Origin: Arenicola marina
Taxonomy: Eukaryota > Annelida > Polychaeta > Arenicolidae
DNA length: 64,000 nucleotides
NCBI GenBank assembly: GCA_964019135.1
Contig: OZ025256.1
Span: forward strand, 36,056,035-36,120,034
Reading direction: 5' to 3'
The notes beneath the pieces are model-generated. The model was given only the letters and a program-made list of their open reading frames with translations, ran no database searches and was not told where the DNA came from. Shown here in pieces: positions 8,271-64,000 of this stretch (positions are counted from its first letter, which is position 1; every line of letters begins with the position of its first letter). The translations under genes were made by a program, and so were the position numbers.

Positions 8271-10433
8271 GCCGTCGTTCCTTGTGGTGCGTAACCGTAC
8301 TGCACTAAGAAACGACGTCGTTCCTTGTGGTGCGTTACCGTACTGCACTAAGAAACGACGTCGTTCCTTGTGGTGCGTTACCGTACTGCACTAAGAAACG
8401 ACGACGCTCCTTGTGGTGCGTTACCGTACTGCACTAAGAAACGACGTCGCTCCTTGTGGTGCGTAACCGTACTGCACTAAGAAACGACGTCGCTCCTTGT
8501 GGTGCGTTACCGTACTGCACTAAGAAACGACGTCCCTCCTTGTGGTGCGTTACCGTACTGCACTAAGAAACGACGTTGCTCCTTGTGGTGCGTTACCGTA
8601 CTGCACTAAGAAACGACGTCGCTCCTTGTGGTGCGTTACCGTACTGCACTAAGAAACGACGTCGCTCCTTGTGGTGCGTTACCGTACTGCACTAAGAAAC
8701 GACGTCGCTCCTTGTGGTGCGTTACCGTACTGCACTAAGAAACGACGTCGCTCCTTGTGGTGCGTTACCGTACTGCACTAAGAAACGACGTTGCTCCTTG
8801 TGGTGCGTTACCGTACTGCACTAAGAAACGCCGTCGCTCCTTGTGGTGCGTTACCGTACTGCACTAAGAAACGACGTCGCTCCTTGTGGTGCATTACCGT
8901 ACTGCACTAAGAAACGCCGTCGCTCTTTGTGGTGCGTTACCGTACTGCACTGAGAAACGCCGGCGCTCCTTGTGGTGCGTTACCGTACTGCACTAAGAAA
9001 CGCCGTCGCTCCTTGTGGTGCGTTACCGTACTGCACTAAGAAACGCCGTCGCTCCTTGTGGTGCGTTACCGTACTGTACTAAGAAACGCCGTCGCTCCTT
9101 GTGGTGCGTTACCGTACTGCCCTAAGAAACGCCGTCGCTCCTTGTGGTGCGTTACCGTACTGCACTAAGAAACGCCGTCGCTCCTTGTGGTGCGTTACCG
9201 TACTGCACTAAGAAACGCCGTCGCTCCTTGTGGTGCGTTACCGTACTGCACTAAGAAACGCCGTCGCTCCTTGTGGTGCGTTACCGTACTGCACTAAGAA
9301 TCGACGTCGTTCCTTGTGGTGCGTTACCGTACTGCGCTTAGAAACGCCGTCGTTCCTTGTGGTGCGTTACCGTACTGCACTAAGAAACGCCGTCGTTCCT
9401 TGTGGTGCGTTACCGTACGGCACTAAGAAACGCCGTCGCTCCTTGTGGTGCGTTACCGTACTGCACTAAGAAACGCCGTCGCTCCTTGTGGTGCGTTACC
9501 GTACTGCACTTAGAAACGACGTCGTTCCTTGTGGTGCGTTCCCGTACTGCACTAAGATACGACGTCGTTCCTTGTGGTGCGTTACCGTACTGCACTAAGA
9601 AACGCCGTCGCTCCTTCTGGTGCGTTACCGTACTGCACTAAGAAACGCCGTCGCTCCTTGTGGTGCGTTACCGTACTGCACTAAGAAACGCCGTCGCTCC
9701 TTGGGGTGCGTTACCGTACTGCACTAAGAAACGCCGTCGCTCCTTGTGGTGCGTTACCGTACTGCACTAAGAAACGCCGTCGCTCCTTGTGGTACGTTAC
9801 CGTACTGCACTAAGAAACGACGTCGTTCCTTGTGGTGCGTCACCGTACTGCACTTAGAAACGACGTCGTTCCTTGAGGTGCGTTACCGTACTGCACTTAG
9901 AAACGCCGTCGTTCCTTGTGGTGCGTTACCGTACTGCACTAAGAAACGCCGTCGTTCCTTGTGGTGCGTTACCGTACGGCACTTAGAAACGACGTCGTTC
10001 CTTGTGGTGCGTTAACGTACTGCACTAAGAAACGCCGTCGCTCCGTGTGGTGCGTTACCGTACTGCACTAAGAAACGACGTCGCTCCTTGTGGTGCGTTA
10101 CCGTACTGCACTAAGAAACGCCGTCGCTCCTTGTGGTGCGTTACCGTACTGCACTAAGGAACGCCGTCGCTTCTTGTGGGGCGTTACCGTACTGCACAAA
10201 GAAACGCCGTCGCTCCTTGTGGTGCGTTACCGTACTGCACTAAGAAACGACGTCGCTCCTTGTGGTGCGTTACCGTACTGTACTAAGAAACGCCGTCGAT
10301 CCTTGTGGTGCGTTACCGTACTGCACTAAGAAACGCCGTCGCTCCTTGTGGTGCGTTACCGTACTGCACTAAGAAACGCCGTCGCTCCTTGTGGTGCGTT
10401 ACCGTACTGCACTAAGCAGCGCCGTCGCTCCTT

Positions 10434-13400
10434 GTGGTACGTTACCGTACTGCACTAAGAAACGACGTCGCTCCTTGTGGTGCGTTGCCGTACTGCACTA
10501 AGAAACGACGTCGCTCCTTGTGGTGCGTTACCGTAATGCACTTAGTAACACCGTCGCTCCTTGTGGTGCGTTACCGTACTGCACTAAGAAACGCCGTCGC
10601 TCCTTGTGGTGCGTTACCGTACGGCACTAAGAAACGCCGTCGCTCCTTGTGGTGCGTTACCGTACTGCACTAAGAAACGCCGTCGCTCCTTGTGGTGCGT
10701 TACCGTACGGCACTAAGAAACGCCGTCGCTCCTTGTGGTGCGTTACCGTACTGCACTAAGAAACGCCGTCGTTCTTTGTGGTGCGTTACCGTACTGCACT
10801 AAGAAACGCCGTCGTTCCTTGTGGTGCGTTACCGTACGGCACTTAGAAACGACGTCGTTCCTTGTGGTGCGTTACCGTACTGCACTAAGAAACGCCGTCG
10901 CTCCTTGTGGTGCGTTACCGTACTGCACTTAGAAACGACGTCGTTCCTTGTGGTGCGTTACCGTACTGCACTAAGAAACGACGTCGCTCCTTGTGGTGCG
11001 TTACCGTACTGCACTAAGAAACGCCGTCGCTCCTTGTGGTGCGTTACCGTACTGCACTAAGAAACGCCGTCGCTCCTTGTGGTGCGTTACCGTACTGCAC
11101 TAAGAAAAGCCGTCGCTCCTTGTGGTGCGTTACCGTACTGCACTAAGAAACGCCGTCGCTCCTTGTGGTGCGTTACCGTACTGCACTAAGAAACGCCGTC
11201 GCTTCCTGTGGTGCGTTACCGTACTGCACTAAGAAACGCCGTCGTTCCTTGTGGTGCGTTACCGTACGGCACTTAGAAACGACGTCGTTCCTTGTGGTGC
11301 GTTACCGTACTGCGCTAAGAAACGACGTCGCTCCTTGTGGTGCGTTACCTTAATGCACTAAGAAACGCCGTCGCTCCTTGTGGTGCGTTACCGTACTGCA
11401 CTAAGAAACGCCGTCGCTCCTTGTGGTGCGTTACCGTACTGCACTAAGAAACGCCGTCGTTCCTTGTGGTGCGTTACCGTACTGTACTAAGAAACGACGT
11501 CGCTCCTTATGGTGCGTTACCGTACTGCACTAAGAAACGCCGTCGCTCCTTGTGGTGCGTTACCGTACTGCACTAAGAAACGCCGTCGCTCTTTGTGGTG
11601 CGTTACCGTACTGCACTAAGAAACGCCGTCGCTCCTTGTGGTGCGTTACCGTACTGCACTAAGAAACGCCGTCGCTCCTTGTGGTGCGTTACCGTACTGC
11701 ACTAAGAAACGACGTCGCTCCTTGTGGTGCGTTACCGTACTGCACTAAGAAACGTCGTCGCTCCTTGTGGTACGTTACCGTACTGCACTAAGAAACGACG
11801 TCGCTCCTTGTGGTGCGTTGCCGTACTGCACTAAGAAACGACGTCGCTCCTTGTGGTGCGTTACCGTAATGCACTTAGTAACACCGTCGCTCCTTGTGGT
11901 GCGTTACCGTACGGCACTAAGAAACGCCGTCGCTCCTTGTGGTGCGTTACCGTACTGCACTAAGAAACGCCGTCGCTCCTTGTGGTGCGTTACCATACTG
12001 CACTAAGAAACGCCGTCGCTCCTTGTGGTGCGTTACCGTACTGCACTAAGAAACGACGTCGCTCCTTGTGGTGCGTTGCCGTACTGCACTAAGAAACGAC
12101 GTCGCTCCTTGTGGTGCGTTACCGTAATGCACTTAGTAACACCGTCGCTCCTTGTGGTGCGTTACCGTACTGCACTAAGAAACGCCGTCGCTCCTTGTGG
12201 TGCGTTACCGTACGGCACTAAGAAACGCCGTCGCTCCTTGTGGTGCGTTACCGTACTGCACTAAGAAACGCCGTCGTTCTTTGTGGTGCGTTACCGTACT
12301 GCACTAAGAAACGCCGTCGTTCCTTGTGGTGCGTTACCGTACGGCACTTAGAAACGACGTCGTTCCTTGTGGTGCGTTACCGTACTGCACTAAGAAACGC
12401 CGTCGCTCCTTGTGGTGCGTTACCGTACTGCACTTAGAAACGACGTCGTTCCTTGTGGTGCGTTACCGTACTGCACTAAGAAACGACGTCGCTCCTTGTG
12501 GTGCGTTACCGTACTGCACTAAGAAACGCCGTCGCTCCTTGTGGTGCGTTACCGTACTGCACTAAGAAACGCCGTCGCTCCTTGTGGTGCGTTACCGTAC
12601 TGCACTAAGAAACGCCGTCGCTCCTTGTGGTGCGTTACCGTACTGCACTAAGAAACGCCGTCGCTCCTTGTTTTGCGTTACCGTACTGCACTAAGAAACG
12701 CCGTCGCTCCTTGTGGTGCGTTACCGTACTGCACTAAGAAACGACGTCGCTCCTTGTGGTGCGTTACCGTACTGCACTAAGAAACGCCATCGCTCCTTGT
12801 GGTGCGTTACCGTACTGCGCTAAGAAACGCCGTCGCTCCTTGTGGTGCGTTACCGTACTGCACTTAGAAACGACGTCGCTCCTTGTGGTGCGTTACCGTA
12901 CTGCGCTAAGAAACGACGTCGCTCCTTGTGGTGCGTTACCGTAATGCACTAAGAAACGCCGTCGCTCCTTGTGGTGCGTTACCGTACTGCACTAAGAAAC
13001 GCCGTCGCTCCTTGTGGTGCGTTACCGTACTGCACTAAGAAACGCCGTCGTTCCTTGTGGTGCGTTACCGTACTGCACTAAGAAACGACGTCGCTCCTTA
13101 TGGTGCGTTACCGTACTGCACTAAGAAACGCCGTCGCTCCTTGTGGTGCGTTACCGTACTGCACTAAGAAACGCCGTCGCTCTTTGTGGTGCGTTACCGT
13201 ACTGCACTAAGAAACGCCGTCGCTCCTTGTGGTGCGTTACCGTACTGCACTAAGAAACGCCGTCGCTCCTTGTGGTGCGTTACCGTACTGCACTAAGAAA
13301 CGACGTCGCTCCTTGTGGTGCGTTACCGTACTGCACTAAGAAACGCCATCGCTCCTTGTGGTGCGTTACCGTACTGCGCTAAGAAACGCCGTCGCTCCTT

Positions 13401-16400
13401 GTGGTGCGTTACCGTACTGCACTAAGAAACGCCGTCGCTCCTTGTGGTGCGTTACCGTACTGCACTAAGAAACGCCGTCGCTTCCTGTGGTGCGTTACCG
13501 TACTGCACTAAGAAACGCCGTCTCTCCTTGTGGTGCGTTACCGTACTGCACTAAGAAACGCCGTCGCTCCTTGTGGTGCGTTACCGTACTGCACTAAGAA
13601 ACGCCGTCGCTCCTTGTGGTGCGTTACCGTACTGCACTAAGAAACGCCGTCGCTCCTTGTGGTGCGTTACCGTACTGCACTAAGAAACGCCGTCGCTCCT
13701 TGTTTTGCGTTACCGTACTGCACTAAGAATCGACGTCGTTCCTTGTGGTGCATTACCGTACTGCGCTTAGAAACGCCGTCGTTCCTTGTGGTGCGTTACC
13801 GTACGGCACTAAGAAACGCCGTCGTTCCTTGTGCTGCGTTACCGTACGGCACTTAGAAACGACGTCGTTCCTTGTGGTGCGTTACCGTACTGCGCTAAGA
13901 AACGACGTCGCTCCTTGTGGTGCGTTACCGTACTGCACTAAGAAACGCCGTCGCTCCTTGTGGTGCGTTACCGTACTGCACTAAGAAACGCCGTCGCTCC
14001 TTGTGGTGCGTTACCGTACTGCACTAAGAAACGCCGTCGTTCCTTGTGGTGCGTTACCGTACTGCACTAAGAAACGACGTCGCTCCTTGTGGTGCGTTAC
14101 CGTACTTCACTAGGAAGCGCCGTCGCTCCTTGTGGTGCGTTACCGTACTGCACTAAGAAACGCCGTCGCTCCTTGTGGTGCGTTACCGTACTGCACTAAG
14201 AAACGCCGTCGCTCCTTGTGGTGCGTTACCGTACTGCACTAAGAAACGCCGTCGCTCCTTGTGGTGCGTTACCGTACTGCACTAAGAAACGCCGTCGTTC
14301 CTTGTGATGCGTTACCGTACTGCACTAAGAAACGACGTCGCTCCTTGTGGTGCGTTACCGTACTGCACTAAGAACCGTCGTCGCTCCTTGTGGTGCGTTA
14401 CCGTACTGCACTAAGAAACGACGTCGCTCCTTGTGGTGCGTTGCCGTAGTGCACTAAGAAACGACGTCGCTCCTTGTGGTGCGTTACCGTAATGCACTTA
14501 GTAACACCGTCGCTCCTTGTGGTGCGTTACCGTACTGCACTAAGAAACGCCGTCGCTCCTTGTGGTGCGTTACCGTACGGCACTAAGAAACGCCGTCGCT
14601 CCTTGTGGTGCGTTACCGTACTGCACTAAGAAACGCCGTCGCTCCTTGTGGTGCGTTACCGTACTGCACTAAGAAACGACGTCGCTCCTTGTGGTGCGTT
14701 ACCGTACTGCACTTAGAAACGACGTCGTTCCTTGTGGTGCGTTACGGTACTGCACTAAGAAACGACGCCGTTCCTTGTGGTGCGTTACCGTACTGCAATA
14801 AGAAACGCCGTCGTTCCTTGTGTTGCGTTACCGCACTGCACTAAGAAACGACGTCGTTCCTTGTGGTGCGTTACCTTACTGCACTAAGAAACGACGTCGC
14901 TCTTTGTGGGGCGTTAGCGTACTGCACTAAGAAACAACGTCGTTCCTTGTGGTGCGTTACCGTACTGCACTAAGAAACGCCGTCGCTCCTTGTGGTGCGT
15001 TACCGTACTGCACTAAGAAACGACATCACCCTTTGTGGTGCGTTACCGTACTGCACTAAGAAACGACGTCGTTCCTTGTGGTGCGTTACCGTACTGCACT
15101 TAGAAACGACGTCGTTCCTTGTGATGCGTTACGGTACTGCACTAAGAAACGACGTCGCTCCTTGTGGTGCGTTACCGTACTGCCCTAAGAAACGACGTCG
15201 TTCCTTGTGGTGCGTTACGGTACTGCACTAAGAAACGACGTCGCTGCTTGTGGTGCGTTACCGTACTGCACTACGAAACGACGTCGCTCCTTGTGGTGCG
15301 TTACCGCACTGCACTAAGAAGCGCCGTCGTTCCTTGTGGTGCGTTACCGTACTGCACTTAGAAACGACGTCGCTCCTTGGGGTGCGTTACCGTACTGCAC
15401 TTAGAAACGACGTCGCTCCTTGTGGTGCGTTACCGTACTGCACTTAGAAACGACGTCGCTCCTTGTGGTGCGTTACCGTACTGCACTTAGAAACGCCGTC
15501 GTTCCTTGTGCTGCGTTACCGTACTGCACTAAGAAACGCCGTCGTTCCTTGTGGTGCGTTACCGTACTGCACTAAGAAACGACGTCGTTCCTTGTGGTGC
15601 GTTACTGTACTGCACTAAGAAACGACGTCATTCCTTGTGGTGCGTTACCGTACTGCACTAAGAAACGCCGTCGCTCCTTGTGGTGCGTTACTGTACTGCA
15701 CTAAGAAACGACGTCGTTCCTTGTGGTGCGTTACGGTACTGCACTAAGAAACGACGCCGTTCCTTGTGGTGCGTTACCGTACTGCAATAAGAAACGCCGT
15801 CGTTCCTTGTGTTGCGTTACCGCACTGCACTAAGAAACGACGTCGTTCCTTGTGGTGCGTTACCTTACTGCACTAAGAAACGACGTCGCTCTTTGTGGGG
15901 CGTTAGCGTACTGCACTAAGAAACAACGTCGTTCCTTGTGGTGCGTTACCGTACTGCACTAAGAAACGCCGTCGCTCCTTGTGGTGCGTTACCGTACTGC
16001 ACTAAGAAACGACATCACCCTTTGTGGTGCGTTACCGTACTGCACTAAGAAACGACGTCGTTCCTTGTGGTGCGTTACCGTACTGCACTTAGAAACGACG
16101 TCGCTCCTTGGGGTGCGTTACCGTACTGCACTTAGAAACGACGTCGCTCCTTGTGGTGCGTTACCGTACTGCACTTAGAAACGACGTCGCTCCTCGTGGT
16201 GCGTTACCGTACTGCACTTAGAAACGCCGTCGTTCCTTGTGCTGCGTTACCGTACTGCACTAAGAAACGCCGTCGTTCCTTGTGGTGCGTTACCGTAATG
16301 CACTTAGAAACGCCGTCGTTCCTTGTGGTGCGTTACCGTACTGCACTAAGAAACGACGTCGTTCCTTGTGGTGCGTTACTGTACGGCACTAAGAAACGAC

Positions 16401-18490
16401 GTCGTTCCTTGTGGTGCGTTACCGTACTGCACTAAGAAACGCCGTCGCTCCTTGTGGTGCGTTACCGTACTGCACTAAGAAACGACGTCGTTCCTTGTGG
16501 TGCGTTACGGTACTGCACTAAGAAACGACGCCGTTCCTTGTGGTGCGTTACCGTACTGCAATAAGAAATGACGTCGTTCCTTGTGGTGCGTTACCGCACT
16601 GCACTAAAAAACGACGTCGTTCCTTGTGGTGCGTTACCGTACTGCACTAAAAAACGACGTCGTTCCTTGTGATGCGTTACGGTACTGCACTAAGAAACGA
16701 CGTCGCTCTTTGTGGTGCGTTACCGTACTGCACTAAGAAACGACGTCGCTCCTTGTGGTGCGTTACGGTACTGCACTAAGAAACGACGTCGCTCCTTGTG
16801 GTGCGTTACCGTACTGCACTAAGAAACGACGTCGCTCCTTGTGGTGCGTTACCGTACTGCACTAAGAAGCGCCGTCGTTCCTTGTGGTGCGTTACCTTAC
16901 TGCACTTAGAAACGACGTCGCTCCTTGTGGTGCGTTACCGTACTGCACTAAGAAACGACGTCGCTCCTTGTGGTGCGTTACCGTACTGCACTTAGAAACG
17001 CCGTCGTTCCTTGTGCTGCGTTACCGTACTGCACTAAGAAACGATGTCGCTCTTTGTGGTGCGTTAGCGTACTGCACTAAGAAACAACGTCGTTCCTTGT
17101 GGTGCGTTACCGTACTGCACTAAAAAACGTCTTTCCTTGTGGTGCGTTACCGTACTGCACTTAGAAACGACGTCGTTCCTTGTGATGCGTTACGGTACTG
17201 CACTAAGAAACGACGTCGCTCCTTGTGGTGCGTTACCGTACTGCACTAAGAAACGACGTCGTTCCTTGTGGTGCGTTACCGTACTGCACTAAGAAACGAC
17301 GTCGCTCCTTGTGGTGCGTTACCGTACTGCACTAAGAAACGACGTCGTTCCTTGTGGTGCGTTACTGTACTGCACTAAGAAACGACGTCGTTCCTTGTGG
17401 TGCGTTATCGTACTGCACTTAGAAACGACGTCGTTCCTTGTGGTGCGTTACGGTACTGCACTAAGAAACGACGTCGCTCCTTGTGGTGCGTTACCGTACT
17501 GCACTAAGAAACGACGTCGCTCCTTGTGGTGCGTTACCGTACTGCACTAAGAAGCGCCGTCGTTCCTTGTGGTGCCTTACCTTACTGCACTTAGAAACGA
17601 CGTCGCTCCTTGTGGTGCGTTACCGTACTGCACTAAGAAACGACGTCGCTCCTTGTGGTGCGTTACCGTACTGCACTTAGAAACGCCGTCGTTCCTTGTG
17701 CTGCGTTACCGTACTGCACTAAGAAACGCCGTCGTTCCTTGTGGTGCGTTACCGTACTGCACTAAGAAACGCCGTCGTTTCTTGTGGTGCGTTACCGTAC
17801 TCCACTAAGAAACGACGTCGTTCCTTGTGGTGCGTTACCGTACTGCACTAAAAAACGACGTCATTCCTTGTGGTGCGTTACCGTACTGCACTAAGAAACG
17901 CCGTCGTTCCTTGTGGTGCGTTACCGTACTGCACTAAGAAACGACGTCGTTCCTTGTGGTGCGTTACTGTACTGCACTAAGAAACGACGTCGTTCCTTGT
18001 GGTGCGTTAAGGTACTGCACCATGAAACGACGCCGTTCCTTGTGGTGCGTTACCGTACTGCAATAAGAAACGACGTCGTTCCTTGTGTTGGGTTACCTTA
18101 CTGCACTAAGAAACGACGTCGTTCCTTGTGGTGCGTTACCTTACTGCACTAAGAAACGACGTCGCTCTTTGTGGTGCGTTAGCGTACTGCACTAAGAAAC
18201 AACGTCGTTCCTTGTGGTGCGTTACCGTACTGCACTAAAAACGCCGTCGCTCCTTGTGGTGCGTTACCGTACTGCACTAAGAAACGACATCACCCCTTGT
18301 GGTGCGTTACCGTACTGCACTAAGATACGACGTCGTTCCTTGTGGTGCGTTACCGTACTGCACTTAGAAACGACGTCGCTCCTTGGGGTGCGTTACCGTA
18401 CTGCACTTAGAAACGACGTCGCTCCTTGTGGTGCGTTAACGTACTGCACTTAGAAACGACGTCGCTCCTTGTGGTGCGTTACCGTACTGC
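10434..18490. repeat. Large duplication in the 43-bp array, copy 1 (partner 47057-55801)
   Basis: Marker monomers at 10434, 11165, 12025, 13659, 14605, 16798, 17311 and 18214 reappear in the same order at 47057, 48003, 49164, 50970, 51916, 54109, 54622 and 55525. The offset grows from 36623 to 36838, 37139 and finally 37311 bp, in steps of 5, 7 and 4 whole monomers. From about 13.6 to 18.49 kb the offset is constant. Both copies contain the rare 40-bp monomer (near 17125 and 54436). Confidence 0.9.
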
Positions 18491-18909
18491 ACTAAGAAAC
18501 GACATCAGCCCTTGTGGTGCGTTACCGTACTGCACTAAGAAACGCCGTCGTTCCTTGTTGTGCGTTACCGTACGGCACTAAGAAACGCCGTCGTTCCTTG
18601 TGGTGCGTTACCGTACTGCACTAAGAAACGACGTCGTTCCTTGTGGTGCGTTACTGTACTGCACTAAGAAACGACGTCGTTCCTTGTGGTGCGTTACCGT
18701 ACTGCACTAAGAAACGCCGTCGCTCCTTGTGGTGCGTTACCGTACTGCACTAAGAAACGACGTCGTTCCTTGTGGTGCGTTACGGTACTGCACTAAGAAA
18801 CGACGCCGTTTCTTGTGGTGCGTTACCGCACTGCAATAAGAAACGCCGTCGTTCCTTGTGGTGCGTTACCGCACTGCACTAAGAAACGACGTCGTTCCTT
18901 GTGGGGCGT

Positions 18910-21900
18910 TACCGCACTGCACTAAGAAACGACGTCGTTCCTTGTGGTGCGTTAGCGTACTGCACTAAGAAACAACGTCGTTCCTTTTGGTGCGTTACCG
19001 TAGTGCACTAAGAAACGCCGTCGTTCCTTGTGGTGCGTTACCGTACTGCACTAAGAAACGCCGTCGTTTCTTGTGGTGCGTTACCGTACTGCACTAAGAA
19101 ACGACGTCGTTCCTTGTGGTGCGTTACCGTACTGCACTAAAAAACGACGTCATTCCTTGTGGTGCGTTACCGTACTGCACTAAGAAACGCCGTCGTTCCT
19201 TGTGGTGCGTTACCGTACTGCACTAAGAAACGACGTCGTTCCTTGTGGTGCGTTAAGGTACTGCACCATGAAACGACGCCGTTCCTTGTGGTGCGTTACC
19301 GTACTGCAATAAGAAACGACGTCGTTCCTTGTGTTGGGTTACCTTACTGCACTAAGAAACGACGTCGTTCGTTGTGGTGCGTTACCTTACTGCACTAAGA
19401 AACGACGTCGCTCTTTGTGGTGCGTTAGCGTACTGCACTAAGAAACAACGTCGTTCCTTGTGGTGCGTTACCGTACTGCACTAAAAACGCCGTCGCTCCT
19501 TGTGGTGCGTTACCGTACTGCACTAAGAAACGACATCACCCCTTGTGGTGCGTTACCGTACTGCACTAAGAAACGACGTCGCTCCTTATGGTGCGTTACC
19601 GTACTGCACTAAGAAACGCCGTCGCTCCTTGTGGTGCGTTACCGTACTGCACTAAGAAACGCCGTCGCTCTTTGTGGTGCGTTACCGTACTGCACTAAGA
19701 AACGCCGTCGCTCCTTGTGGTGCGTTACCGTACTGCACTAAGAAACGCCGTCGCTCCTTGTGGTGCGTTACCGTACTGCACTAAGAAACGACGTCGCTCC
19801 TTGTGGTGCGTTACCGTACTGCACTAAGAAACGCCATCGCTCCTTGTGGTGCGTTACCGTACTGCGCTAAGAAACGCCGTCGCTCCTTGTGGTGCGTTAC
19901 CGTACTGCACTAAGAAACGCCGTCGCTCCTTGTGGTGCGTTACCGTACTGCACTAAGAAACGCCGTCGCTTCCTGTGGTGCGTTACCGTACTGCACTAAG
20001 AAACGCCGTCTCTCCTTGTGGTGCGTTACCGTACTGCACTAAGAAACGCCGTCGCTCCTTGTGGTGCGTTACCGTACTGCACTAAGAAACGCCGTCGCTC
20101 CTTGTGGTGCGTTACCGTACTGCACTAAGAAACGCCGTCGCTCCTTGTGGTGCGTTACCGTACTGCACTAAGAAACGCCGTCGCTCCTTGTTTTGCGTTA
20201 CCGTACTGCACTAAGAATCGACGTCGTTCCTTGTGGTGCGTTACCGTACTGCGCTTAGAAACGCCGTCGTTCCTTGTGGTGCGTTACCGTACGGCACTAA
20301 GAAACGCCGTCGTTCCTTGTGCTGCGTTACCGTACGGCACTTAGAAACGACGTCGTTCCTTGTGGTGCGTTACCGTACTGCGCTAAGAAACGACGTCGCT
20401 CCTTGTGGTGCGTTACCGTACTGCACTAAGAAACGCCGTCGCTCCTTGTGGTGCGTTACCGTACTGCACTAAGAAACGCCGTCGCTCCTTGTGGTGCGTT
20501 ACCGTACTGCACTAAGAAACGCCGTCGTTCCTTGTGGTGCGTTACCGTACTGCACTAAGAAACGACGTCGCTCCTTGTGGTGCGTTACCGTACTTCACTA
20601 GGAAGCGCCGTCGCTCCTTGTGGTGCGTTACCGTACTGCACTAAGAAACGCCGTCGCTCCTTGTGGTGCGTTACCGTACTGCACTAAGAAACGCCGTCGC
20701 TCCTTGTGGTGCGTTACCGTACTGCACTAAGAAACGCCGTCGCTCCTTGTGGTGCGTTACCGTACTGCACTAAGAAACGCCGTCGTTCCTTGTGATGCGT
20801 TACCGTACTGCACTAAGAAACGACGTCGCTCCTTGTGGTGCGTTACCGTACTGCACTAAGAACCGTCGTCGCTCCTTGTGGTGCGTTACCGTACTGCACT
20901 AAGAAACGACGTCGCTCCTTGTGGTGCGTTGCCGTAGTGCACTAAGAAACGACGTCGCTCCTTGTGGTGCGTTACCGTAATGCACTTAGTAACACCGTCG
21001 CTTCTTGTGGTGCGTTACCGTACTGCACTAAGAAACGCCGTCGCTCCTTGTGGTGCGTTACCGTACGGCACTAAGAAACGCCGTCGCTCCTTGTGGTGCG
21101 TTACCGTACTGCACTAAGAAACGCCGTCGCTCCTTGTGGTGCGTTACCGTACTGCACTAAGAAACGACGTCGCTCCTTGTGGTGCGTTACCGTACTGCAC
21201 TTAGAAACGACGTCGTTCCTTGTGGTGCGTTACGGTACTGCACTAAGAAACGACGCCGTTCCTTGTGGTGCGTTACCGTACTGCAATAAGAAACGCCGTC
21301 GTTCCTTGTGTTGCGTTACCGCACTGCACTAAGAAACGACGTCGTTCCTTGTGGTGCGTTACCTTACTGCACTAAGAAACGACGTCGCTCTTTGTGGGGC
21401 GTTAGCGTACTGCACTAAGAAACAACGTCGTTCCTTGTGGTGCGTTACCGTACTGCACTAAGAAACGCCGTCGCTCCTTGTGGTGCGTTACCGTACTGCA
21501 CTAAGAAACGACATCACCCTTTGTGGTGCGTTACCGTACTGCACTAAGAAACGACGTCGTTCCTTGTGGTGCGTTACCGTACTGCACTTAGAAACGACGT
21601 CGTTCCTTGTGATGCGTTACGGTACTGCACTAAGAAACGACGTCGCTCCTTGTGGTGCGTTACCGTACTGCCCTAAGAAACGACGTCGTTCCTTGTGGTG
21701 CGTTACGGTACTGCACTAAGAAACGACGTCGCTGCTTGTGGTGCGTTACCGTACTGCACTACGAAACGACGTCGCTCCTTGTGGTGCGTTACCGCACTGC
21801 ACTAAGAAGCGCCGTCGTTCCTTGTGGTGCGTTACCGTACTGCACTTAGAAACGACGTCGCTCCTTGGGGTGCGTTACCGTACTGCACTTAGAAACGACG

Positions 21901-53000: not shown

Positions 53001-55801
53001 ACTGTACTGCACTAAGAAACGACGTCGTTCCTTGTGGTGCGTTACGGTACTGCACTAAGAAACGACGCCGTTCCTTGTGGTGCGTTACCGTACTGCAATA
53101 AGAAACGCCGTCGTTCCTTGTGTTGCGTTACCGCACTGCACTAAGAAACGACGTCGTTCCTTGTGGTGCGTTACCTTACTGCACTAAGAAACGACGTCGC
53201 TCTTTGTGGGGCGTTAGCGTACTGCACTAAGAAACAACGTCGTTCCTTGTGGTGCGTTACCGTACTGCACTAAGAAACGCCGTCGCTCCTTGTGGTGCGT
53301 TACCGTACTGCACTAAGAAACGACATCACCCTTTGTGGTGCGTTACCGTACTGCACTAAGAAACGACGTCGTTCCTTGTGGTGCGTTACCGTACTGCACT
53401 TAGAAACGACGTCGCTCCTTGGGGTGCGTTACCGTACTGCACTTAGAAACGACGTCGCTCCTTGTGGTGCGTTACCGTACTGCACTTAGAAACGACGTCG
53501 CTCCTCGTGGTGCGTTACCGTACTGCACTTAGAAACGCCGTCGTTCCTTGTGCTGCGTTACCGTACTGCACTAAGAAACGCCGTCGTTCCTTGTGGTGCG
53601 TTACCGTAATGCACTTAGAAACGCCGTCGTTCCTTGTGGTGCGTTACCGTACTGCACTAAGAAACGACGTCGTTCCTTGTGGTGCGTTACTGTACTGCAC
53701 TAAGAAACGACGTCGTTCCTTGTGGTGCGTTACCGTACTGCACTAAGAAACGCCGTCGCTCCTTGTGGTGCGTTACCGTACTGCACTAAGAAACGACGTC
53801 GTTCCTTGTGGTGCGTTACGGTACTGCACTAAGAAACGACGCCGTTCCTTGTGGTGCGTTACCGTACTGCAATAAGAAATGACGTCGTTCCTTGTGGTGC
53901 GTTACCGCACTGCACTAAAAAACGACGTCGTTCCTTGTGGTGCGTTACCGTACTGCACTAAAAAACGACGTCGTTCCTTGTGATGCGTTACGGTACTGCA
54001 CTAAGAAACGACGTCGCTCTTTGTGGTGCGTTACCGTACTGCACTAAGAAACGACGTCGCTCCTTGTGGTGCGTTACGGTACTGCACTAAGAAACGACGT
54101 CGCTCCTTGTGGTGCGTTACCGTACTGCACTAAGAAACCGCGTCGCTCCTTGTGGTGCGTTACCGTACTGCACTAAGAAGCGCCGTCGTTCCTTGTGGTG
54201 CGTTACCTTACTGCACTTAGAAACGACGTCGCTCCTTGTGGTGCGTTACCGTACTGCACTAAGAAACGACGTCGCTCCTTGTGGTGCGTTACCGTACTGC
54301 ACTTAGAAACGCCGTCGTTCCTTGTGCTGCGTTACCGTACTGCACTAAGAAACGACGTCGCTCTTTGTGGTGCGTTAGCGTACTGCACTAAGAAACAACG
54401 TCGTTCCTTGTGGTGCGTTACCGTACTGCACTAAAAAACGTCTTTCCTTGTGGTGCGTTACCGTACTGCACTTAGAAACGACGTCGTTCCTTGTGATGCG
54501 TTACGGTACTGCACTAAGAAACGACGTCGCTCCTTGTGGTGCGTTACCGTACTGCACTAAGAAACGACGTCGTTCCTTGTGGTGCGTTACCGTACTGCAC
54601 TAAGAAACGACGTCGCTCCTTGTGGTGCGTTACCGTACTGCACTAAGAAACGACGTCGTTCCTTGTGGTGCGTTACTGTACTGCACTAAGAAACGACGTC
54701 GTTCCTTGTGGTGCGTTATCGTACTGCACTTAGAAACGACGTCGTTCCTTGTGGTGCGTTACGGTACTGCACTAAGAAACGACGTCGCTCCTTGTGGTGC
54801 GTTACCGTACTGCACTAAGAAACGACGTCGCTCCTTGTGGTGCGTTACCGTACTGCACTAAGAAGCGCCGTCGTTCCTTGTGGTGCGTTACCTTACTGCA
54901 CTTAGAAACGACGTCGCTCCTTGTGGTGCGTTACCGTACTGCACTAAGAAACGACGTCGCTCCTTGTGGTGCGTTACCGTACTGCACTTAGAAACGCCGT
55001 CGTTCCTTGTGCTGCGTTACCGTACTGCACTAAGAAACGCCGTCGTTCCTTGTGGTGCGTTACCGTACTGCACTAAGAAACGCCGTCGTTTCTTGTGGTG
55101 CGTTACCGTACTGCACTAAGAAACGACGTCGTTCCTTGTGGTGCGTTACCGTACTGCACTAAAAAACGACGTCATTCCTTGTGGTGCGTTACCGTACTGC
55201 ACTAAGAAACGCCGTCGTTCCTTGTGGTGCGTTACCGTACTGCACTAAGAAACGACGTCGTTCCTTGTGGTGCGTTACTGTACTGCACTAAGAAACGACG
55301 TCGTTCCTTGTGGTGCGTTAAGGTACTGCACCATGAAACGACGCCGTTCCTTGTGGTGCGTTACCGTACTGCAATAAGAAACGACGTCGTTCCTTGTGTT
55401 GGGTTACCTTACTGCACTAAGAAACGACGTCGTTCCTTGTGGTGCGTTACCTTACTGCACTAAGAAACGACGTCGCTCTTTGTGGTGCGTTAGCGTACTG
55501 CACTAAGAAACAACGTCGTTCCTTGTGGTGCGTTACCGTACTGCACTAAAAACGCCGTCGCTCCTTGTGGTGCGTTACCGTACTGCACTAAGAAACGACA
55601 TCACCCCTTGTGGTGCGTTACCGTACTGCACTAAGAAACGACGTCGTTCCTTGTGGTGCGTTACCGTACTGCACTTAGAAACGACGTCGCTGCTTGGGGT
55701 GCGTTACCGTACTGCACTTAGAAACGACGTCGCTCCTTGTGGTGCGTTAACGTACTGCACTTAGAAACGACGTCGCTCCTTGTGGTGCGTTACCGTACTG
55801 C
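47057..55801. repeat. Large duplication in the 43-bp array, copy 2 (partner 10434-18490)
   Basis: Same marker order as 10434-18490, with three extra groups of whole monomers. Part of the length gain is a local 7-monomer repeat: marker blocks start at 48605 and 48906 (301 bp apart), then 49164 (258 bp, six monomers). After about 55.8 kb similarity to the 18.6-19.3 kb region continues with about two monomers missing. Confidence 0.9.
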
Positions 55802-57200
55802 ACTAAGAAACGCCGTCGTTCCTTGTGGTGCGTTACCGTACTGCACTAAGAAACGACGTCGTTCCTTGTGGTGCGTTACTGTACTGCACTAAGAAACGAC
55901 GTCGTTCCTTGTGGTGCGTTACCGTACTGCACTAAGAAACGCCGTCGCTCCTTGTGGTGCGTTACCGTACTGCACTAAGAAACGACGTCGTTCCTTGTGG
56001 TGCGTTACGGTACTGCACTAAGAAACGACGCCGTTTCTTGTGGTGCGTTACCGCACTGCAATAAGAAACGCCGTCGTTCCTTGTGGTGCGTTACCGCACT
56101 GCACTAAGAAACGACGTCGTTCCTTGTGGGGCGTTACCGCACTGCACTAAGAAACGACGTCGTTCCTTGTGGTGCGTTAGCGTACTGCACTAAGAAACAA
56201 CGTCGTTCCTTTTGGTGCGTTACCGTACTGCACTAAGAAACGCCGTCGTTCCTTGTGGTGCGTTACCGTACTGCACTAAGAAACGCCGTCGTTTCTTGTG
56301 GTGCGTTACCGTACTGCACTAAGAAACGACGTCGTTCCTTGTGGTGCGTTACCGTACTGCACTAAAAAACGACGTCATTCCTTGTGGTGCGTTACCGTAC
56401 TGCACTAAGAAACGCCGTCGTTCCTTGTGGTGCGTTACCGTACTGCACTAAGAAACGACGTCGTTCCTTGTGGTGCGTTACTGTACTGCACTAAGAAACG
56501 ACGTCGTTCCTTGTGGTGCGTTAAGGTACTGCACCATGAAACGACGCCGTTCCTTGTGGTGCGTTACCGTACTGCAATAAGAAACGACGTCGTTCCTTGT
56601 GTTGGGTTACCTTACTGCACTAAGAAACGACGTCGTTCCTTGTGGTGCGTTACCTTACTGCACTAAGAAACGACGTCGTTCCTTGTGGTGCGTTACCGTA
56701 CTGCACTTAGAAACGACGTCGCTCCTTGGGGTGCGTTACCGTACTGCACTTAGAAACGACGTCGCTCCTTGTGGTGCGTTAACGTACTGCACTTAGAAAC
56801 GACGTCGCTCCTTGTGGTGCGTTACCGTACTGCACTTAGAAACGACGTCGTTCCTTGTGGTGCGTTACCGTACTGCACTTAGAAACGCCGTCGTTCCTTG
56901 TGGTGCGTTACCGTACTGCACTAAGAATCGACATCACCCCTTGTGGTGCGTTACCGTACTGCACTAAGAAACGCCGTCGTTCCTTGTTGTGCGTTACCGT
57001 ACGGCACTAAGAAACGCCGTCGTTCCTTGTGGTGCGTTACCGTACTGCACTAAGAAACGACGTCGTTCCTTGTGGTGCGTTACCGTACTGCACTAAGAAA
57101 CGACATCACCCCTTGTGGTGCGTTACCGTACTGCACTAAGAAACGCCGTCGTTCCTTGTTGTGCGTTACCGTACTGCACTAAGAAACGCCGTCGTTCCTT

Positions 57201-60200
57201 GTGGTGCGTTACCGTACTGCACTAAGAAACGACGTCGTTCCTTGTGGTGCGTTACTGTACTGCACTAAGAAACGACGTCGTTCCTTGTGGTGCGTTAAGG
57301 TACTGCACCATGAAACGACGCCGTTCCTTGTGGTGCGTTACCGTACTGCAATAAGAAACGACGTCGTTCCTTGTGTTGGGTTACCTTACTGCACTAAGAA
57401 ACGACGTCGTTCCTTGTGGTGCGTTACCTTACTGCACTAAGAAACGACGTCGCTCTTTGTGGTGCGTTAGCGTACTGCACTAAGAAACAACGTCGTTCCT
57501 TGTGGTGCGTTACCGTACTGCACTAAAAACGCCGTCGCTCCTTGTGGTGCGTTTCCGTACTGCACTAAGAAACGACATCACCCCTTGTGGTGCGTTACCG
57601 TACTGCACTAAGAAACGACGTCGTTCCTTGTGGTGCGTTACCGTACTGCACTTAGAAACGACGTCGCTCCTTGGGGTGCGTTACCGTACTGCACTTAGAA
57701 ACGACGTCGCTCCTTGTGGTGCGTTAACGTACTGCACTTAGAAACGACGTCGCTCCTTGTGGTGCGTTACCGTACTGCACTTAGAAACGCCGTCGTTCTT
57801 TGTGGTGCGTTACCGTACTGCACTAAGAAACGCCGTCGTTCCTTGTGGTGCGTTACCGTACTGCACTAAGAAACGACATCACCCCTTGTGGTGCGTTACC
57901 GTACTGCACTAAGAAACGCCGTCGTTCCTTGTTGTGCGTTACCGTACGGCACTAAGAAACGCCGTCGTTCCTTGTGGTGCGTTACCGTACTGCACTAAGA
58001 AACGACGTCGTTCCTTGTGGTGCGTTACTGTACTGCACTAAGAAACGACGTCGTTCCTTGTGGTGCGTTACCGCACTGCACTAAGAAACGACGTCGTTCC
58101 TTGTGGGGCGTTACCGCACTGCACTAAGAAACGACGTCGTTCCTTGTGGTGCGTTAGCGTACTGCACTAAGAAACAACGTCGTTCCTTTTGGTGCGTTAC
58201 CGTACTGCACTAAAAAACGACGTCGTTCCTTGTGGTGCGTTACCGTACTGCACTAAAAAACGACGTCGTTCCTTGTGGTGCGTTACCGTACTGCACTTAG
58301 AAACGACGTCGTTCCTTGTGATGCGTTACGGTACTGCACTAAGAAACGACGTCGCTCCTTGTGGTGCGTTACCGTACTGCACTAAGAAACGACGTCGTTC
58401 CTTGTGGTGCGTTACCGTACTGCACTAAGAAACGACGTCGCTCCTTGTGGTGCGTTACCGTACTGCACTAAGAAACGACGTCGTTCCTTGTGGTGCGTTA
58501 CCGTACTGCACTAAGAAACGACGTCGTTCCTTGTGGTGCGTTACCGTACTGCACTTAGAAACGATGTCGTTCCTTGTGGTGCGTTGCGGTACTGCACTAA
58601 GAAACGACGTCGCTCCTTGTGGTGCGTTACCGTACTGCACTAAGAAACGACGTCGCTCATTGTGGTGCGTTACCGTACTGCACTAAGAAGCGCCGTCGTT
58701 CCTTGTGGTGCGTTACCGTACTGCACTTAGAAACGACGTCGCTCCTTGGGGTGCGTTACCGTACTGCACTGAGAAACGACGTCGCTCCTTGTGGTGCGTT
58801 ACCGTACTGCACTAAGAAACGACGTCGCTCTTTGTGGTGCGTTAGCGTACTGCACTAAGAAACAACGTCGTTCCTTGTGGTGCGTTACCGTACTGCACTT
58901 AGAAACGTCGTCGTTCCTTGTGCTGCGTTACCGTACTGCACTAAGAAACGCCGTCGTTCCTTGTGGTGCGTTACCGTACTGCACTAAGAAACGACATCAC
59001 CCCTTGTGGTGCGTTACCGTACTGCACTAAGAAACGCCGTCGTTCCTTGTGCTGCGTTACCGTACTGCACTTAGAAACGACGTCGTTCCTTGTGATGCGT
59101 TACGGTACTGCACTAAGAAACGACGTCGCTCCTTGTGGTGCGTTACCGTAGTGCACTAAGAAACGACGTCGCTCCTTGTGGTGCGTTACCGTACTGCACT
59201 AAGAAACGACGTCGTTCCTTGTGGTGCGTTACCGTACTGCACTAAGAAACGACGTCGCTCCTTGTGGTGCGTTACCGTATTGCACTAAGAAACGACGCCG
59301 TTCCTTGTGGTGCGTTACCGTACTGCACTAAGAAACGACGTCGTTCCTTGTGGTGCGTTACCGTACTGCACTAAGAAACGCCGTCGTTCCTTGTGGTGCG
59401 TTACGGTACTGCACTAAGAAACGACGTGGCTCCCTGTGGTGCGTTACCGTACTGCACTAAGAAGCGCCGTCGTTCCTTGTGGTGCGTTACCGTACTGCAC
59501 TTAGAAACGACGTCGCTCCTTGGGGTGCGTTACCGTACTGCACTTAGAAACGACGTCGCTCCTTGTGGTGCGTTACCGTACTGCACTTAGAAACGACGTC
59601 GCTCCTTGTGGTGCGTTACCGTACTGCACTTAGAAACGCCGTCGTTCCTTGTGCTGCGTTACCGTACTGCACTAAGAAACGCCGTCGTTCCTTGTGGTGC
59701 GTTACCGTACTGCACTAAGAAACGCCGTCGCTCCTTGTGGTGCGTTACCGTACTGCACTAAGAAACGACGTCGTTCCTTGTGGTGCGTTACGGTACTGCA
59801 CTAAGAAACGACGCCGTTTCTTGTGGTGCGTTAAAGCACTGCAATAAGAAACGCCGTCGTTCCTTGTGGTGCGTTACCGCACTGCACTAAGAAACGACGT
59901 CGTTCCTTGTGGGGCGTTACCGCACTGCACTAAGAAACGACGTCGTTCCTTGTGGCGCGTTACCTTACTGCACTAAAAAACGACGTCGCTCTTTGTGGTG
60001 CGTTAGCGTACTGCACTAAGAAACAACGTCGTTCCTTGTGATGCGTTACGGTACTGCACTAAGAAACGACGTCGCTCCTTGTGCTGCGTTACCGTACTGC
60101 ACTAAGAAACGACGTCGTTCCTTGTGGTGCGTTACCGTACTGCACTAAGAAACGACGTCGCTCCTTGTGGTGCGTTACCGTACTGCACTAAGAAACGACG

Positions 60201-63200
60201 TCGTTCCTTGTGGTGCGTTACCGTACTGCACTAAGAAACGACGTCGTTCCTTGTGGTGCGTTACCGTACTGCACTTAGAAACGACGTCGTTCCTTGTGGT
60301 GCGTTGCGGTACTGCACTAAGAAACGACGTCGCTCCTTGTGGTGCGTTACCGTACTGCACTAAGAAACGACGTCGCTCCTTGTGGTGCGTTACCGTACTG
60401 CACTAAGAAACGCCGTCGTTCCTTGTGGTGCGTTACCGTACTGCACTTAGAAACGACGTCGCTCCTTGTGGTGCGTTACCGTATTGCACTTAGAAACGAC
60501 GTCGCTCCTTGTGGTGCGTTACCGTACTGCACTAAGAAACGACGTCGCTCTTTGTGGTGCGTTAGCGTACTGCACTAAGAAACAACGTCGTTCCTTGTGG
60601 TGCGTTACCGTACTGCACTTAGAAACGTCGTCGTTCCTTGTGCTGCGTTACCGTACTGCACTAAGAAACGCCGTCGTTCCTTGTGGTGCGTTACCGTACT
60701 GCACTAAGAAACGACATCACCCCTTGTGGTGCGTTACCGTACTGCACTAAGAAACGCCGTCGTTCCTTGTGCTGCGTTACCGTACTGCACTTAGAAACGA
60801 CGTCGTTCCTTGTGATGCGTTACGGTGCTGCACTAAGAAACGACGTCGCTCCTTGTGGTGCGTTACCGTACTGCACTAAGAAACGACGTCGCTCCTTGTG
60901 GTGCGTTACCGTACTGCACTAAGAAACGACGTCGTTCCTTGTGGTGCGTTACCGTACTGCACTAAGAAACGACGTCGCTCCTTGTGGTGCGTTACCGTAC
61001 TGCACTAAGAAACTACGCCGTTCCTTGTGGTGCGTTACCGTACTGCACTAAGAAACGACGTCGTTCCTTGTGGTGCGTTACCGTACTGCACTTAGAAACG
61101 ACGTCGTTCCTTGTGGTGCGTTACGGTACTGCACTAAGAAACGACGTCGCTCCCTGTGGTGCGTTACCGTACTGCACTAAGAAGCGCCGTCGTTCCTTGT
61201 GGTGCGTTACCGTACTGCACTTAGAAACGACGTCGCTCCTTGGGGTGCGTTACCGTACTGCACTTAGAAACGACGTCGCTCCTTGTGGTGCGTTACCGTA
61301 CTGCACTTAGAAACGACGTCGCTCCTTGTGGTGCGTTACCGTACTGCACTTAGAAACGCCGTCGTTCCTTGTGCTGCGTTACCGTACTGCACTAAGAAAC
61401 GCCGTCGTTCCTTGTGGTGCGTTACCGTACTGCACTTAGAAACGCCGTCGTTCCTTGTGGTGCGTTACCGTACTGCACTAAGAAACGACGTCGTTCCTTG
61501 TGGTGCGTTACTGTACTGCACAAAGAAACGACGTCGTTCCTTGTGGTGCGTTACCTTACCGCACTAAGAAACGACATCGCTCCTTTTGGTGCGTTACCGT
61601 ACTGCACTTAGAAACGACGTCGCTCCTTGTGGTGCGTTACCGTACTGCACTAAGAAACGACGTCGTTCCTGGTGGTGCGTTACCGTACCGCACTAAGAAA
61701 CGACATCGCTCCTTGTGGTGCGTTACCGTACTGCACTAAGAAACGACGTCGTTCCTTGTGGTGCGTTACCGTACTGCACTAAGAAACGACGTCGCTCCTT
61801 GTGGTGCGTTACCGTACTGCACTAAGAAACGACGTCGTTCCTTGTGGTGCGTTACCGTACTGCACTAAGAAACGACGTCGTTCCTTGTGGTGGGTTACCG
61901 TACTGCACTTAGAAACGACGTCGTTCCTTGTGGTGCGTTACGGTACTGCACTAAGAAACGACGTCGCTCCTTGTGGTGCGTTACCGTACTGCACTAAGAA
62001 ACGACGTCGCTCCTTGTGGTGCGTTACCGTACTGCACTAAGAAGCGCCGTCGTTCCTTGTGGTGCGTTACCTTACTGCACTTAGAAACGACGTCGCTCCT
62101 TGTGGTGGGTTACCGTACTGCACTAAGAAACGACGTCGCTCCTTGTGGTGCGTTACCGTACTGCACTTAGAAACGCCGTCGTTCCTTGTGCTGCGTTACC
62201 GTACTGCACTAAGAAACGCCGTCGTTCCTTGTGGTGCGTTACCGTACTGCACTAAGAAACGCCGTCGTTCCTTGTGGTGCGTTACCGTACTGCACTAAGA
62301 AACGACGTCGTTCCTTGTGGTGCGTTACCGTACTGCACTAAAAAACGACGTCATTCCTTGTGGTGCGTTACCGTACTGCACTAAGAAACGCCGTCGTTCC
62401 TTGTGGTGCGTTACCGTACTGCACTAAGAAACGACGTCGTTCCTTGTGGTGCGTTACTGTACTGCACTAAGAAACGACGTCGTTCCTTGTGGTGCGTTAC
62501 GGTACTGCACTATGAAACGACGCCGTTCCTTGTGGTGCGTTACCGTACTGCAATAAGAAACGACGTCGTTCCTTGTGTTGGGTTACCTTACTGCACTAAG
62601 AAACGACGTCGTTCCTTGTGGTGCGTTACCTTACTGCACTAAGAAACGACGTCGCTCTTTGTGGTGCGTTAGCGTACTGCACTAAGAAACAACGTCGTTC
62701 CTTGTGGTGCGTTACCGTACTGCACTAAAAACGCCGTCGCTCCTTGTGGTGCGTTACCGTACTGCACTAAGAAACGACATCACCCCTTGTGGTGCGTTAC
62801 CGTACTGCACTAAGAAACGACGTCGTTCCTTGTGGTGCGTTACCGTACTGCACTTAGAAACGACGTCGCTCCTTGAGGTGCGTTACCGTACTGCACTTAG
62901 AAACGACGTCGCTCCTTGTGGTGCGTTAACGTACTGCACTTAGAAACGACGTCGCTCCTTGTGGTGCGTTACCGTACTGCACTTAGAAACGCCGTCGTTC
63001 TTTGTGCTGCGTTACCGTACTGCACTAAGAAACGCCGTCGTTCCTTGTGGTGCGTTACCGTACTGCACTAAGAAACGACATCACCCCTTGTGGTGCGTTA
63101 CCGTACTGCACTAAGAAACGCCGTCGTTCCTTGTTGTGCGTTACCGTACGGCACTAAGAAACGCCGTCGTTCCTTGTGGTGCGTTACCGTACTGCACTAA

Positions 63201-64000
63201 GAAACGACGTCGTTCCTTGTGGTGCGTTACTGTACTGCACTAAGAAACGACGTCGTTCCTTGTGGTGCGTTACCGTACTGCACTAAGAAACGCCGTCGCT
63301 CCTTGTGGTGCGTTACCGTACTGCACTAAGAAACGACGTCGTTCCTTGTGGTGCGTTACGGTACTGCACTAAGAAACGACGCCGTTTCTTGTGGTGCGTT
63401 AAAGCACTGCAATAAGAAACGCCGTCGTTCCTTGTGGTGCGTTACCGCACTGCACTAAGAAACGACGTCGTTCCTTGTGGGGCGTTACCGCACTGCACCA
63501 AGAAACGACGTCGTTCCTTGTGGTGCGTTACCTTACTGCACTAAGAAACGACGTCGCTCTTTGTGGTGCGTTAGCGTACTGCACTAAGAAACAACGTCGT
63601 TCCTTTTGGTGCGTTACCGTACTGCACTAAAAAACGACGTCGTTCCTTGTGGTGCGTTACCGTACTGCACTAAGAAACGACGTCGCTCCTTGTGGTGCGT
63701 TACCGTACTGCACTAAGAAACGACGCCGTTCCTTGTGGTGCGTTACCGTACTGCACTAAGAAACGACGTCGTTCCTTGTGGTGCGTTACCGTACTGCACT
63801 TAGAAACGACGTCGTTCCTTGTGGTGCGTTACGGTACTGCACTAAGAAACGACGTCGCTCCCTGTGGTGCGTTACCGTACTGCACTAAGAAGCGCCGTCG
63901 TTCCTTGTGGTGCGTTACCGTACTGCACTAAGAAACGACGTCGCTCCTTGTGGTGCGTTACCGTACTGCACTTAGAAACGACGTCGCTCCTTGGGGTGCG
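57201..64000. repeat. Second large duplication in the 43-bp array, copy 2 (partner 30205-38122)
   Basis: Follows the marker order of 30.2-38.1 kb to the last base of the window. It lacks the second 989-bp unit seen at 33.1-34.1 kb. Private changes include GTGCTGCAC near 60827 and CCTGGTGGTGCG near 61669. Just upstream, 56427 and 57201 start a repeated marker block 774 bp apart (18 monomers). Confidence 0.88.

What the first reader, a model, noticed from the sequence alone, without database searches (positions are those of the whole stretch)
8271..64000. A 55.7-kb 43-bp satellite with nested higher-order structure
Marker variants of a very short monomer recur in fixed order, at periods of 989, 2407, 2535, 3869, 4127, 6488 and 8511 bp and at two distances of 25.9-27.0 and 36.6-37.3 kb. 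Higher-order repeats are best known for ~171-bp primate alpha satellite. Here a 43-bp monomer forms units of 23 to 96 monomers, themselves duplicated in larger blocks. This suggests repeated recent amplification of long segments, as in centromeric, subtelomeric or sex-chromosome heterochromatin. Organism and role are unknown.
Basis: partly seen in the sequence, partly recalled or inferred. Interest (0 to 1): 0.75.

Follow-up and report, generated by a model that had tools for sequence, protein, structure and literature searches.

The report
Giant private 43-bp tandem repeat array
A 43-letter DNA word is repeated about 6,840 times in a row at one place in a large genome and has been reshuffled by copying long blocks next to themselves; it is a large but ordinary example of non-coding repeat DNA, and neutral copying and mutation are enough to explain it.

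Summary
Window 8273-64000 is an unbroken head-to-tail array of a 43-bp unit (1,297 monomers, 95% identical to consensus). The array runs on to about C9:36,358,447: 294 kb, about 6,840 monomers, one orientation. Within stated limits, no copy was found elsewhere in the 867-Mb assembly.

"Higher-order satellite" is only partly right. The spacings are not one iterated unit. They are separate tandem duplications of 20-296 monomers, plus older ones up to 37 kb, nested in each other; only 1 of 903 segments reaches 2.9 tandem copies. Junctions in the part read are in register, pointing to homologous misaligned exchange or slippage. A neutral simulation can reproduce the measured statistics. Being single-locus argues against a shared centromeric satellite; the site is not subtelomeric; a chromosome-specific centromere is not excluded. 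The 54-, 26- and 31-bp minisatellites beside it are also confined to this locus.

Irregular higher-order structure in single-locus VNTRs is already described in human. Verdict: new, unusually large member of a known kind.

The parts
8273..64000 (+). 43-bp tandem array, 1,297 monomers; continues beyond the window to about C9:36,358,447
8273..10164 (+). left-edge 44 monomers, not covered by any duplicated segment of >=20 monomers within the window
12917..18550 (+). block of 131 monomers duplicated at 50228 (lag 868 monomers, 37,311 bp, 99.54%)
50228..55861 (+). second copy of 12917-18550
33203..38148 (+). block of 115 monomers duplicated at 59081 (lag 602, 25,878 bp, 99.58%)
59081..64000 (+). 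second copy of 33203-38148, running to the window edge
12960..16658 (+). block of 86 monomers duplicated at 19449 (lag 151, 6,489 bp, 99.46%)
35267..42877 (+). adjacent tandem duplication, lag 90 monomers (3,869 bp), length 87, 99.44%
40039..45327 (+). adjacent tandem duplication, lag 56 (2,407 bp), length 67, 99.17%
18761..26156 (+). adjacent tandem duplication, lag 96 (4,127 bp), length 76, 99.27%
17386..28606 (+). blocks 17386-20095 and 25897-28606, lag 198 (8,511 bp), length 63, 99.19%
25768..30797 (+). adjacent tandem duplication, lag 59 (2,535 bp), length 58, 99.12%
31999..34149 (+). adjacent tandem duplication, lag 23 (989 bp), length 27, 98.54%
5242..7827 (+). flanking 26-bp minisatellite, 99.5 copies; found at this locus only
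4..1200 (+). flanking 54-bp minisatellite (4-859 and 1056-1200), starting left of the window; found at this locus only
3451..3889 (+). flanking 42-bp minisatellite, 10.5 copies
4815..5023 (+). flanking 42/83-bp minisatellite

Best explanation
A non-coding, single-locus tandem array (a giant minisatellite or VNTR of satellite size) that grew and turned over by misaligned homologous events between monomers: unequal sister-chromatid exchange, or replication slippage or break-induced replication within the array. Each event duplicates or deletes a block of whole monomers, from a few to several hundred. Point mutations label the monomers; later duplications nest inside and overprint earlier ones, which gives marker variants recurring in fixed order at many unrelated spacings. 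Shown here: the array, its extent, its confinement to one locus within the limits stated, the block structure, the in-register junctions in the part read, and that a selection-free model can suffice. Inferred: which homologous process acts, the order of events, and that the array has no sequence-specific function.
For: (1) One locus, one orientation: a 33-nt pattern with <=2 mismatches gives 6,052 forward and 0 reverse matches genome-wide, control 0; 5,226 lie in the read part and 69 in L053, leaving about 757 for the 35.4 kb not read, which has room for about 822 monomers. Two rarer markers, fully listed, give 57 of 57 and 63 of 63 matches on C9 inside the array. (2) Block structure: of 903 duplicated segments in 5,946 monomers, 33 have length 0.7-1.5 x lag at lags of 20 or more and 1 has more (lag 68, 2.87 tandem copies); the longest is lag 296, 286 monomers, 99.74%. 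(3) In-register junctions: monomer lengths are only 40, 42, 43 or 45, plus one cut by the end of the stretch, and no monomer of 5,946 differs from consensus at more than 7 of 43 columns, so no chimeric or out-of-phase junction is seen. (4) Sharing of monomer triplets is 0.12-0.60 between neighbouring 20-kb bins and near 0 between the ends of the read array, as local duplication predicts. (5) Selection-free simulation with mean divergence set: of 12 runs at 6 settings, the 4 runs at the two closest settings (block limit 300 with 10,000 events; 600 with 5,000), picked after seeing the results, give 467-692 distinct variants (observed 576), 167-208 singletons (206), 608-1,244 segments (903), coverage 0.896-0.962 (0.95), longest 219-421 (286), 0-2 multi-copy segments (1), 24-49 adjacent duplications (33) (observed; runs). 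(6) Non-coding: 43 is not a multiple of 3, and the longest ATG/GTG/TTG ORF in the window part of the array is 122 aa; no Rfam or tRNA match in the window.
Against: The spread of 179 single-step singleton mutations over the 43 columns is slightly uneven (p=0.037), with none at columns 7, 20 and 42, so weak constraint on some columns is not excluded. The simulation has free settings; the other 8 runs, the 2 equilibrium runs and the 9 growth runs fitted less well. Lags of 59 and 23 monomers recur at several places and have above-average label identity (8.0% and 6.6%, chance 2.8%); part of this may be copies of one duplication, but a preferred block size is not excluded. Some blocks recur more than twice at scattered places (for example the one near C9:36,141,337, at lags 708, 823, 1001 and 1297). 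Rolling-circle reinsertion would also leave in-register junctions. Single-locus status rests on an assembly: in mouse, a repeat called single-locus from the assembly gave about fifty FISH signals (PMC3218096, passage). Assembly order could not be checked against reads.
Confidence: 0.82

Rival explanations
1. Chromosome-specific centromeric satellite: this array carries the kinetochore of C9, and other chromosomes use other repeats.
For: Long, single-orientation tandem array of 294 kb without insertions in the part read and with nested duplications, flanked by other tandem repeats and fragments resembling reverse transcriptase. A chromosome-specific centromere sequence is reported for one chromosome of a stick insect (PMC11691646, passages).
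Against: Found on one contig only, 0.034% of the genome; the most abundant tandem repeat was the centromere repeat in most species with known centromeres (PMC4053949, passages; that method was not made to find chromosome-specific repeats). The 26-, 31- and 54-bp neighbours are equally private, so private arrays are the local rule and need no special role.
Confidence: 0.08
2. True regular higher-order-repeat satellite, as in primate alpha satellite.
For: Marker variants recur in fixed order; listed segments have means of 97.9-99.7% against a 92-93% background. Lags 59 and 23 recur at several places.
Against: No dominant period: the best lag over the read array (296) makes only 8.3% of labels identical. 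902 of 903 segments have length below 1.5 x lag.
Confidence: 0.04
3. Assembly artefact: the order of blocks, or the array length, is wrong.
For: Duplicates up to 12.3 kb long at 99.74% identity are hard to assemble.
Against: No N in the part read, non-array DNA on both sides in the same contig, sharing that falls with distance. The longest duplicate still carries about 0.26% differences, which accurate long reads can resolve (inference).
Confidence: 0.06

Closest known systems
Human single-locus VNTR arrays with irregular HORs, such as the 61-bp VNTR of Xp22.33 (PMC2588610, passages)
   Same: Short unit, single locus, irregular higher-order blocks (1.6 and 2.5 kb) in a complex arrangement
   Different: 18.6 kb there, about 294 kb here; duplicated blocks here reach 12.3 kb in one piece and 37 kb in lag
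DYZ19, 125-bp repeat of human Yq11.222, 246 kb (PMC2588610, passages)
   Same: Single-locus, non-centromeric array of similar total size
   Different: Longer unit, Y-linked; no HOR is marked for it in the table seen
Arabidopsis CEN178 arrays with pairwise-block HORs (TRASH, PMC10199239, passages)
   Same: HORs there are defined as pairs of multi-monomer blocks, as found here
   Different: 178-bp unit in centromeres (that it is on all chromosomes is recalled)
Mouse single-locus tandem-repeat families (PMC3218096, passages)
   Same: Short units (17, 29, 54 bp among the rows seen) at one assembled locus, some with HOR
   Different: Arrays in the rows seen are about 4-12 kb with 22-33% variability; the 54-bp one was multi-locus by FISH

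Membership tests
Single-locus VNTR / minisatellite array | Tandem unit of about 10-100 bp (range recalled) | tested here: met
   43 bp
Single-locus VNTR / minisatellite array | Found at one place in the genome | tested here: met
   6,052 forward, 0 reverse; rarer markers 57 of 57 and 63 of 63 on C9 within the array; about 757 matches of the common pattern were counted but not listed one by one; assembly only, no FISH
Single-locus VNTR / minisatellite array | Copy number varies between individuals | not testable with these tools
   One assembly only
HOR satellite (alpha-satellite sense) | A unit of n monomers iterated in many highly similar copies | tested here: not met
   1 of 903 segments has length >=1.5 x lag
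HOR in the pairwise-block sense (TRASH) | Pair of blocks of at least 3 monomers, each monomer pair with few variants | tested here: met
   903 pairs of blocks of at least 20 monomers built from stretches at >=98.5% identity; TRASH itself was not run; definition from PMC10199239 (passages)
Centromeric satellite | CENP-A/CenH3 chromatin | not testable with these tools
   Sequence only
Centromeric satellite | Shared by most chromosomes | tested here: not met
   Found on C9 only
Centromeric satellite | Most abundant tandem repeat of the genome | not tested
   Other tandem repeats of the genome were not surveyed; this one is 0.034% of it
Subtelomeric repeat | Near chromosome ends | tested here: not met
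   C9:36.06-36.36 Mb of 43.38 Mb, so at least 7.0 Mb from either end of its contig; telomere motif TTAGGG starts at base 5 of C2, the ends of C9 were not listed

The most novel reading that the evidence does not exclude
The array is the chromosome-specific centromere of C9, built on a 43-bp unit far below nucleosome length and kept young by kilobase-scale in-register duplications, in a genome whose chromosomes each use private repeats.
Probability: 0.07. Interest if true: 0.6.

Novelty: new member of a known kind. Interest (0 to 1): 0.3.

Why it matters
It is a clean, largely readable case of satellite turnover: one locus, no insertions in the part read, thousands of labelled monomers, and blocks duplicated at graded ages. 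It lets models of unequal exchange be fitted directly. It also cautions that marker variants recurring at fixed distances do not prove a regular higher-order repeat.

Tried and rejected
Coding repeat: rejected, 43 is not a multiple of 3 and ORFs in the window part of the array are at most 122 aa. Structured RNA or tRNA: no match in the window. Hairpin-forming monomer: weak; the TRF consensus has z -1.57 with 15 of 200 shuffles as stable, and the commonest exact variant of the window has z -0.24 with 75 of 200. Prokaryotic or viral origin: no exact match of the 33-nt core in genome contigs or viral contigs. Dispersed satellite: rejected within the limits stated. DNA-mode search of the own genome gave nothing, but that mode skips common words, so it says nothing. 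Literature: of '43-bp' satellite searches I looked into one paper for the 43-bp unit; the 43-bp As51 variant of Psalidodon fasciatus (PMC9253505, passages) has the same length, but its sequence was not seen, so identity was not tested. Equilibrium simulations (2 runs, divergence not tuned) and growth simulations (9 runs) fitted worse than the closest settings.
Full report
What is there. The window is C9:36,056,035-36,120,034 of an 867-Mb genome in 762 contigs; C9 is 43.38 Mb. From window position 8273 to the window edge lies an unbroken head-to-tail array of a 43-bp unit, 93% matches, 0% indels. Splitting it gives 1,297 monomers, 162 distinct strings, and 95.2% mean identity of the 43-bp monomers to consensus. 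The next 200 kb show no gap over 500 bp between matches of the 33-nt core, and no N. The right end is in L053, at about C9:36,358,447. The array is therefore about 294.1 kb, about 6,840 monomers by length. I read 5,946 whole monomers from the left and about 72 at the right end; 35.4 kb in between were not read.

One locus. A 33-nt core pattern with up to 2 mismatches has 6,052 forward and 0 reverse matches in the whole genome, and 0 for the reversed control. The listing shows only the first 100 places and starts at this array; since another listing runs in contig order from C1, I infer that C1-C8 hold none. 5,226 matches lie in the read part and 69 in L053; the remaining 757 or so fit the unread 35.4 kb (room for about 822 monomers), but were not listed singly. 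Two rarer markers, all of whose places were listed, gave 57 of 57 and 63 of 63 on C9 within the array, all forward. This is a statement about the assembly: in mouse a repeat called single-locus from the assembly gave about fifty FISH signals (PMC3218096, passage).

Block structure in the window. Sliding stretches of 20 monomers at every lag, those at 98.5% identity or more join into 56 segments, against 0 in each of 5 shuffles of monomer order; random pairs are 92.7% identical. 1,219 of 1,297 monomers lie in at least one segment (40 of the 56 were listed). But these are pairs of blocks. Lag 90 has length 87, lag 59 has 58, lag 56 has 67, lag 96 has 76, lag 23 has 27. The 37.3-kb and 25.9-kb lags seem to belong together: blocks 12917-18550 and 33203-38148 recur at 50228 and 59081, which fits an old duplication of about 37 kb followed by expansion of the first copy, or deletion in the second, between them. 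Lags 602, 512 and 456 differ by 90 and 56, the local duplications of the first copy; their three source blocks map to overlapping parts of one stretch, 59081 to the window edge. The order of events is my inference.

Block structure over the read array. In 5,946 monomers there are 903 segments, covering 5,649 monomers; one shuffle of single monomers and one of blocks of five give none. The longest is lag 296, 286 monomers, 99.74%. One segment of 903 has length at least 1.5 x lag (lag 68, 2.87 copies); 33 have length 0.7 to 1.5 x lag at lags of 20 or more. Some blocks recur more than twice at scattered places (near C9:36,141,337: lags 708, 823, 1001, 1297), and lags 59 and 23 appear at 4 and 6 of the 33 near-adjacent duplications, some of which may be copies of one event. 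No lag dominates: the best, 296, makes 8.3% of monomer labels identical, then 59 with 8.0%, 178 and 23 with 6.6%, against 2.8% by chance. Sharing of label triplets is 0.12-0.60 between neighbouring 20-kb bins and 0.00-0.07 between the first bin and those from 60 kb on.

Mechanism. Monomer lengths are 43 (5,816), 42 (90), 45 (38) or 40 (2), apart from one cut by the end of the stretch; most odd-length monomers belong to a few variants that recur. No monomer differs from consensus at more than 7 of 43 columns. So the duplications visible here joined monomer to monomer in register, which points to homologous misalignment (unequal sister exchange, slippage, break-induced replication) and not to end joining. 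Which of these acts cannot be told from one assembly.

Is selection needed? I simulated an array of roughly constant size, started homogeneous, with random block duplication or deletion (block length log-uniform to a limit) and point mutation, divergence set to match. Of 12 runs at 6 settings, the 4 at the two closest settings, picked after seeing the results, include each observed value in their range: distinct variants 467-692 (observed 576), singletons 167-208 (206), segments 608-1,244 (903), coverage 0.896-0.962 (0.95), longest 219-421 (286), multi-copy 0-2 (1), adjacent 24-49 (33); observed values are. The other 8 runs fit less well, as do the 2 equilibrium runs, whose divergence was not tuned, and the 9 growth runs. 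Block limit and number of events were free, so this shows sufficiency and is no proof. Of 206 singleton variants, 179 are one step from a commoner one; their spread over columns is slightly uneven (p=0.037), and CpG transitions are not in clear excess (21 of 179, against 56 elsewhere; 10 of the 43 consensus columns are in CpG). The monomer's fold is not clearly more stable than shuffles. Nothing in the window part of the array looks coding or like a known RNA.

Surroundings. Left of the array are minisatellites of 54, 42, 42/83 and 26 bp; right of it one of 14 bp and one of 31 bp. Of 8 reading-frame pieces from the flanks, 5 match reverse transcriptase, zf-RVT or RNase H models, all below Pfam's cut-offs, and look like decayed retroelements; one has only chance-level matches and two have none. 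Complete listings for the 26-, 54- and 31-bp units gave 80 of 80, 49 of 49 and 15 of 15 matches at this locus; the 42-, 42/83- and 14-bp ones were not searched. The 294-kb array thus sits in a nest of minisatellites, of which those tested are private.

Compared with what is known. Human single-locus VNTRs show irregular HORs: 1.6 and 2.5 kb in an 18-kb array of a 61-bp unit (PMC2588610, passages). That paper puts the classical VNTR arrays at up to 50 kb and gives DYZ19 as 246 kb. HOR structure was seen in 76 of 171 species with Sanger data (PMC4053949, passages). TRASH defines a HOR as a pair of similar multi-monomer blocks (PMC10199239, passages); by that wide definition this array is full of HORs, by the alpha-satellite one it is not. 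The listings of searches for a 43-bp satellite and for related structures did not name this repeat; apart from the passages cited, only titles and starts of abstracts were seen, so its absence from print is not shown. I file it as a new, very large member of the single-locus VNTR/minisatellite kind.

Noticed in passing
5242-7827: 26-bp minisatellite of about 100 copies; 80 of 80 genome-wide pattern matches are here. Its minus strand is open for up to 558 codons, probably only because its units hold few stop codons.
   Followed up: partly
4-1200: 54-bp minisatellite (18 codons per unit, open in one frame with breaks), starting about 1.8 kb left of the window; 49 of 49 matches at this locus. Interrupted by unrelated DNA at 860-1055.
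   Followed up: partly
1246-2640: Nested inverted repeats, 18 bp at 1246-1263/2623-2640 (100%) and 39 bp at 1421-1459/2408-2446 (90%), look like the ends of one or two non-autonomous DNA transposons.
   Followed up: no
L053 2801-3000: Near the right end of the array a run of consensus monomers is identical (100% at 43-bp lag), so that edge is homogeneous and not decayed.
   Followed up: no
C9:36191287-36298898 (L038-L048): A 45-bp monomer class (38 copies) occurs only in this part of the read array, marking a separate domain.
   Followed up: no
L052 840-1454 and L052 2390 to L051 326: 14-bp and 31-bp minisatellites right of the array; the 31-bp one is found at this locus only, 15 of 15.
   Followed up: partly
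L051 and L052: Fragments resembling reverse transcriptase, zf-RVT and RNase H, interrupted by stops, all below Pfam cut-offs.
   Followed up: partly
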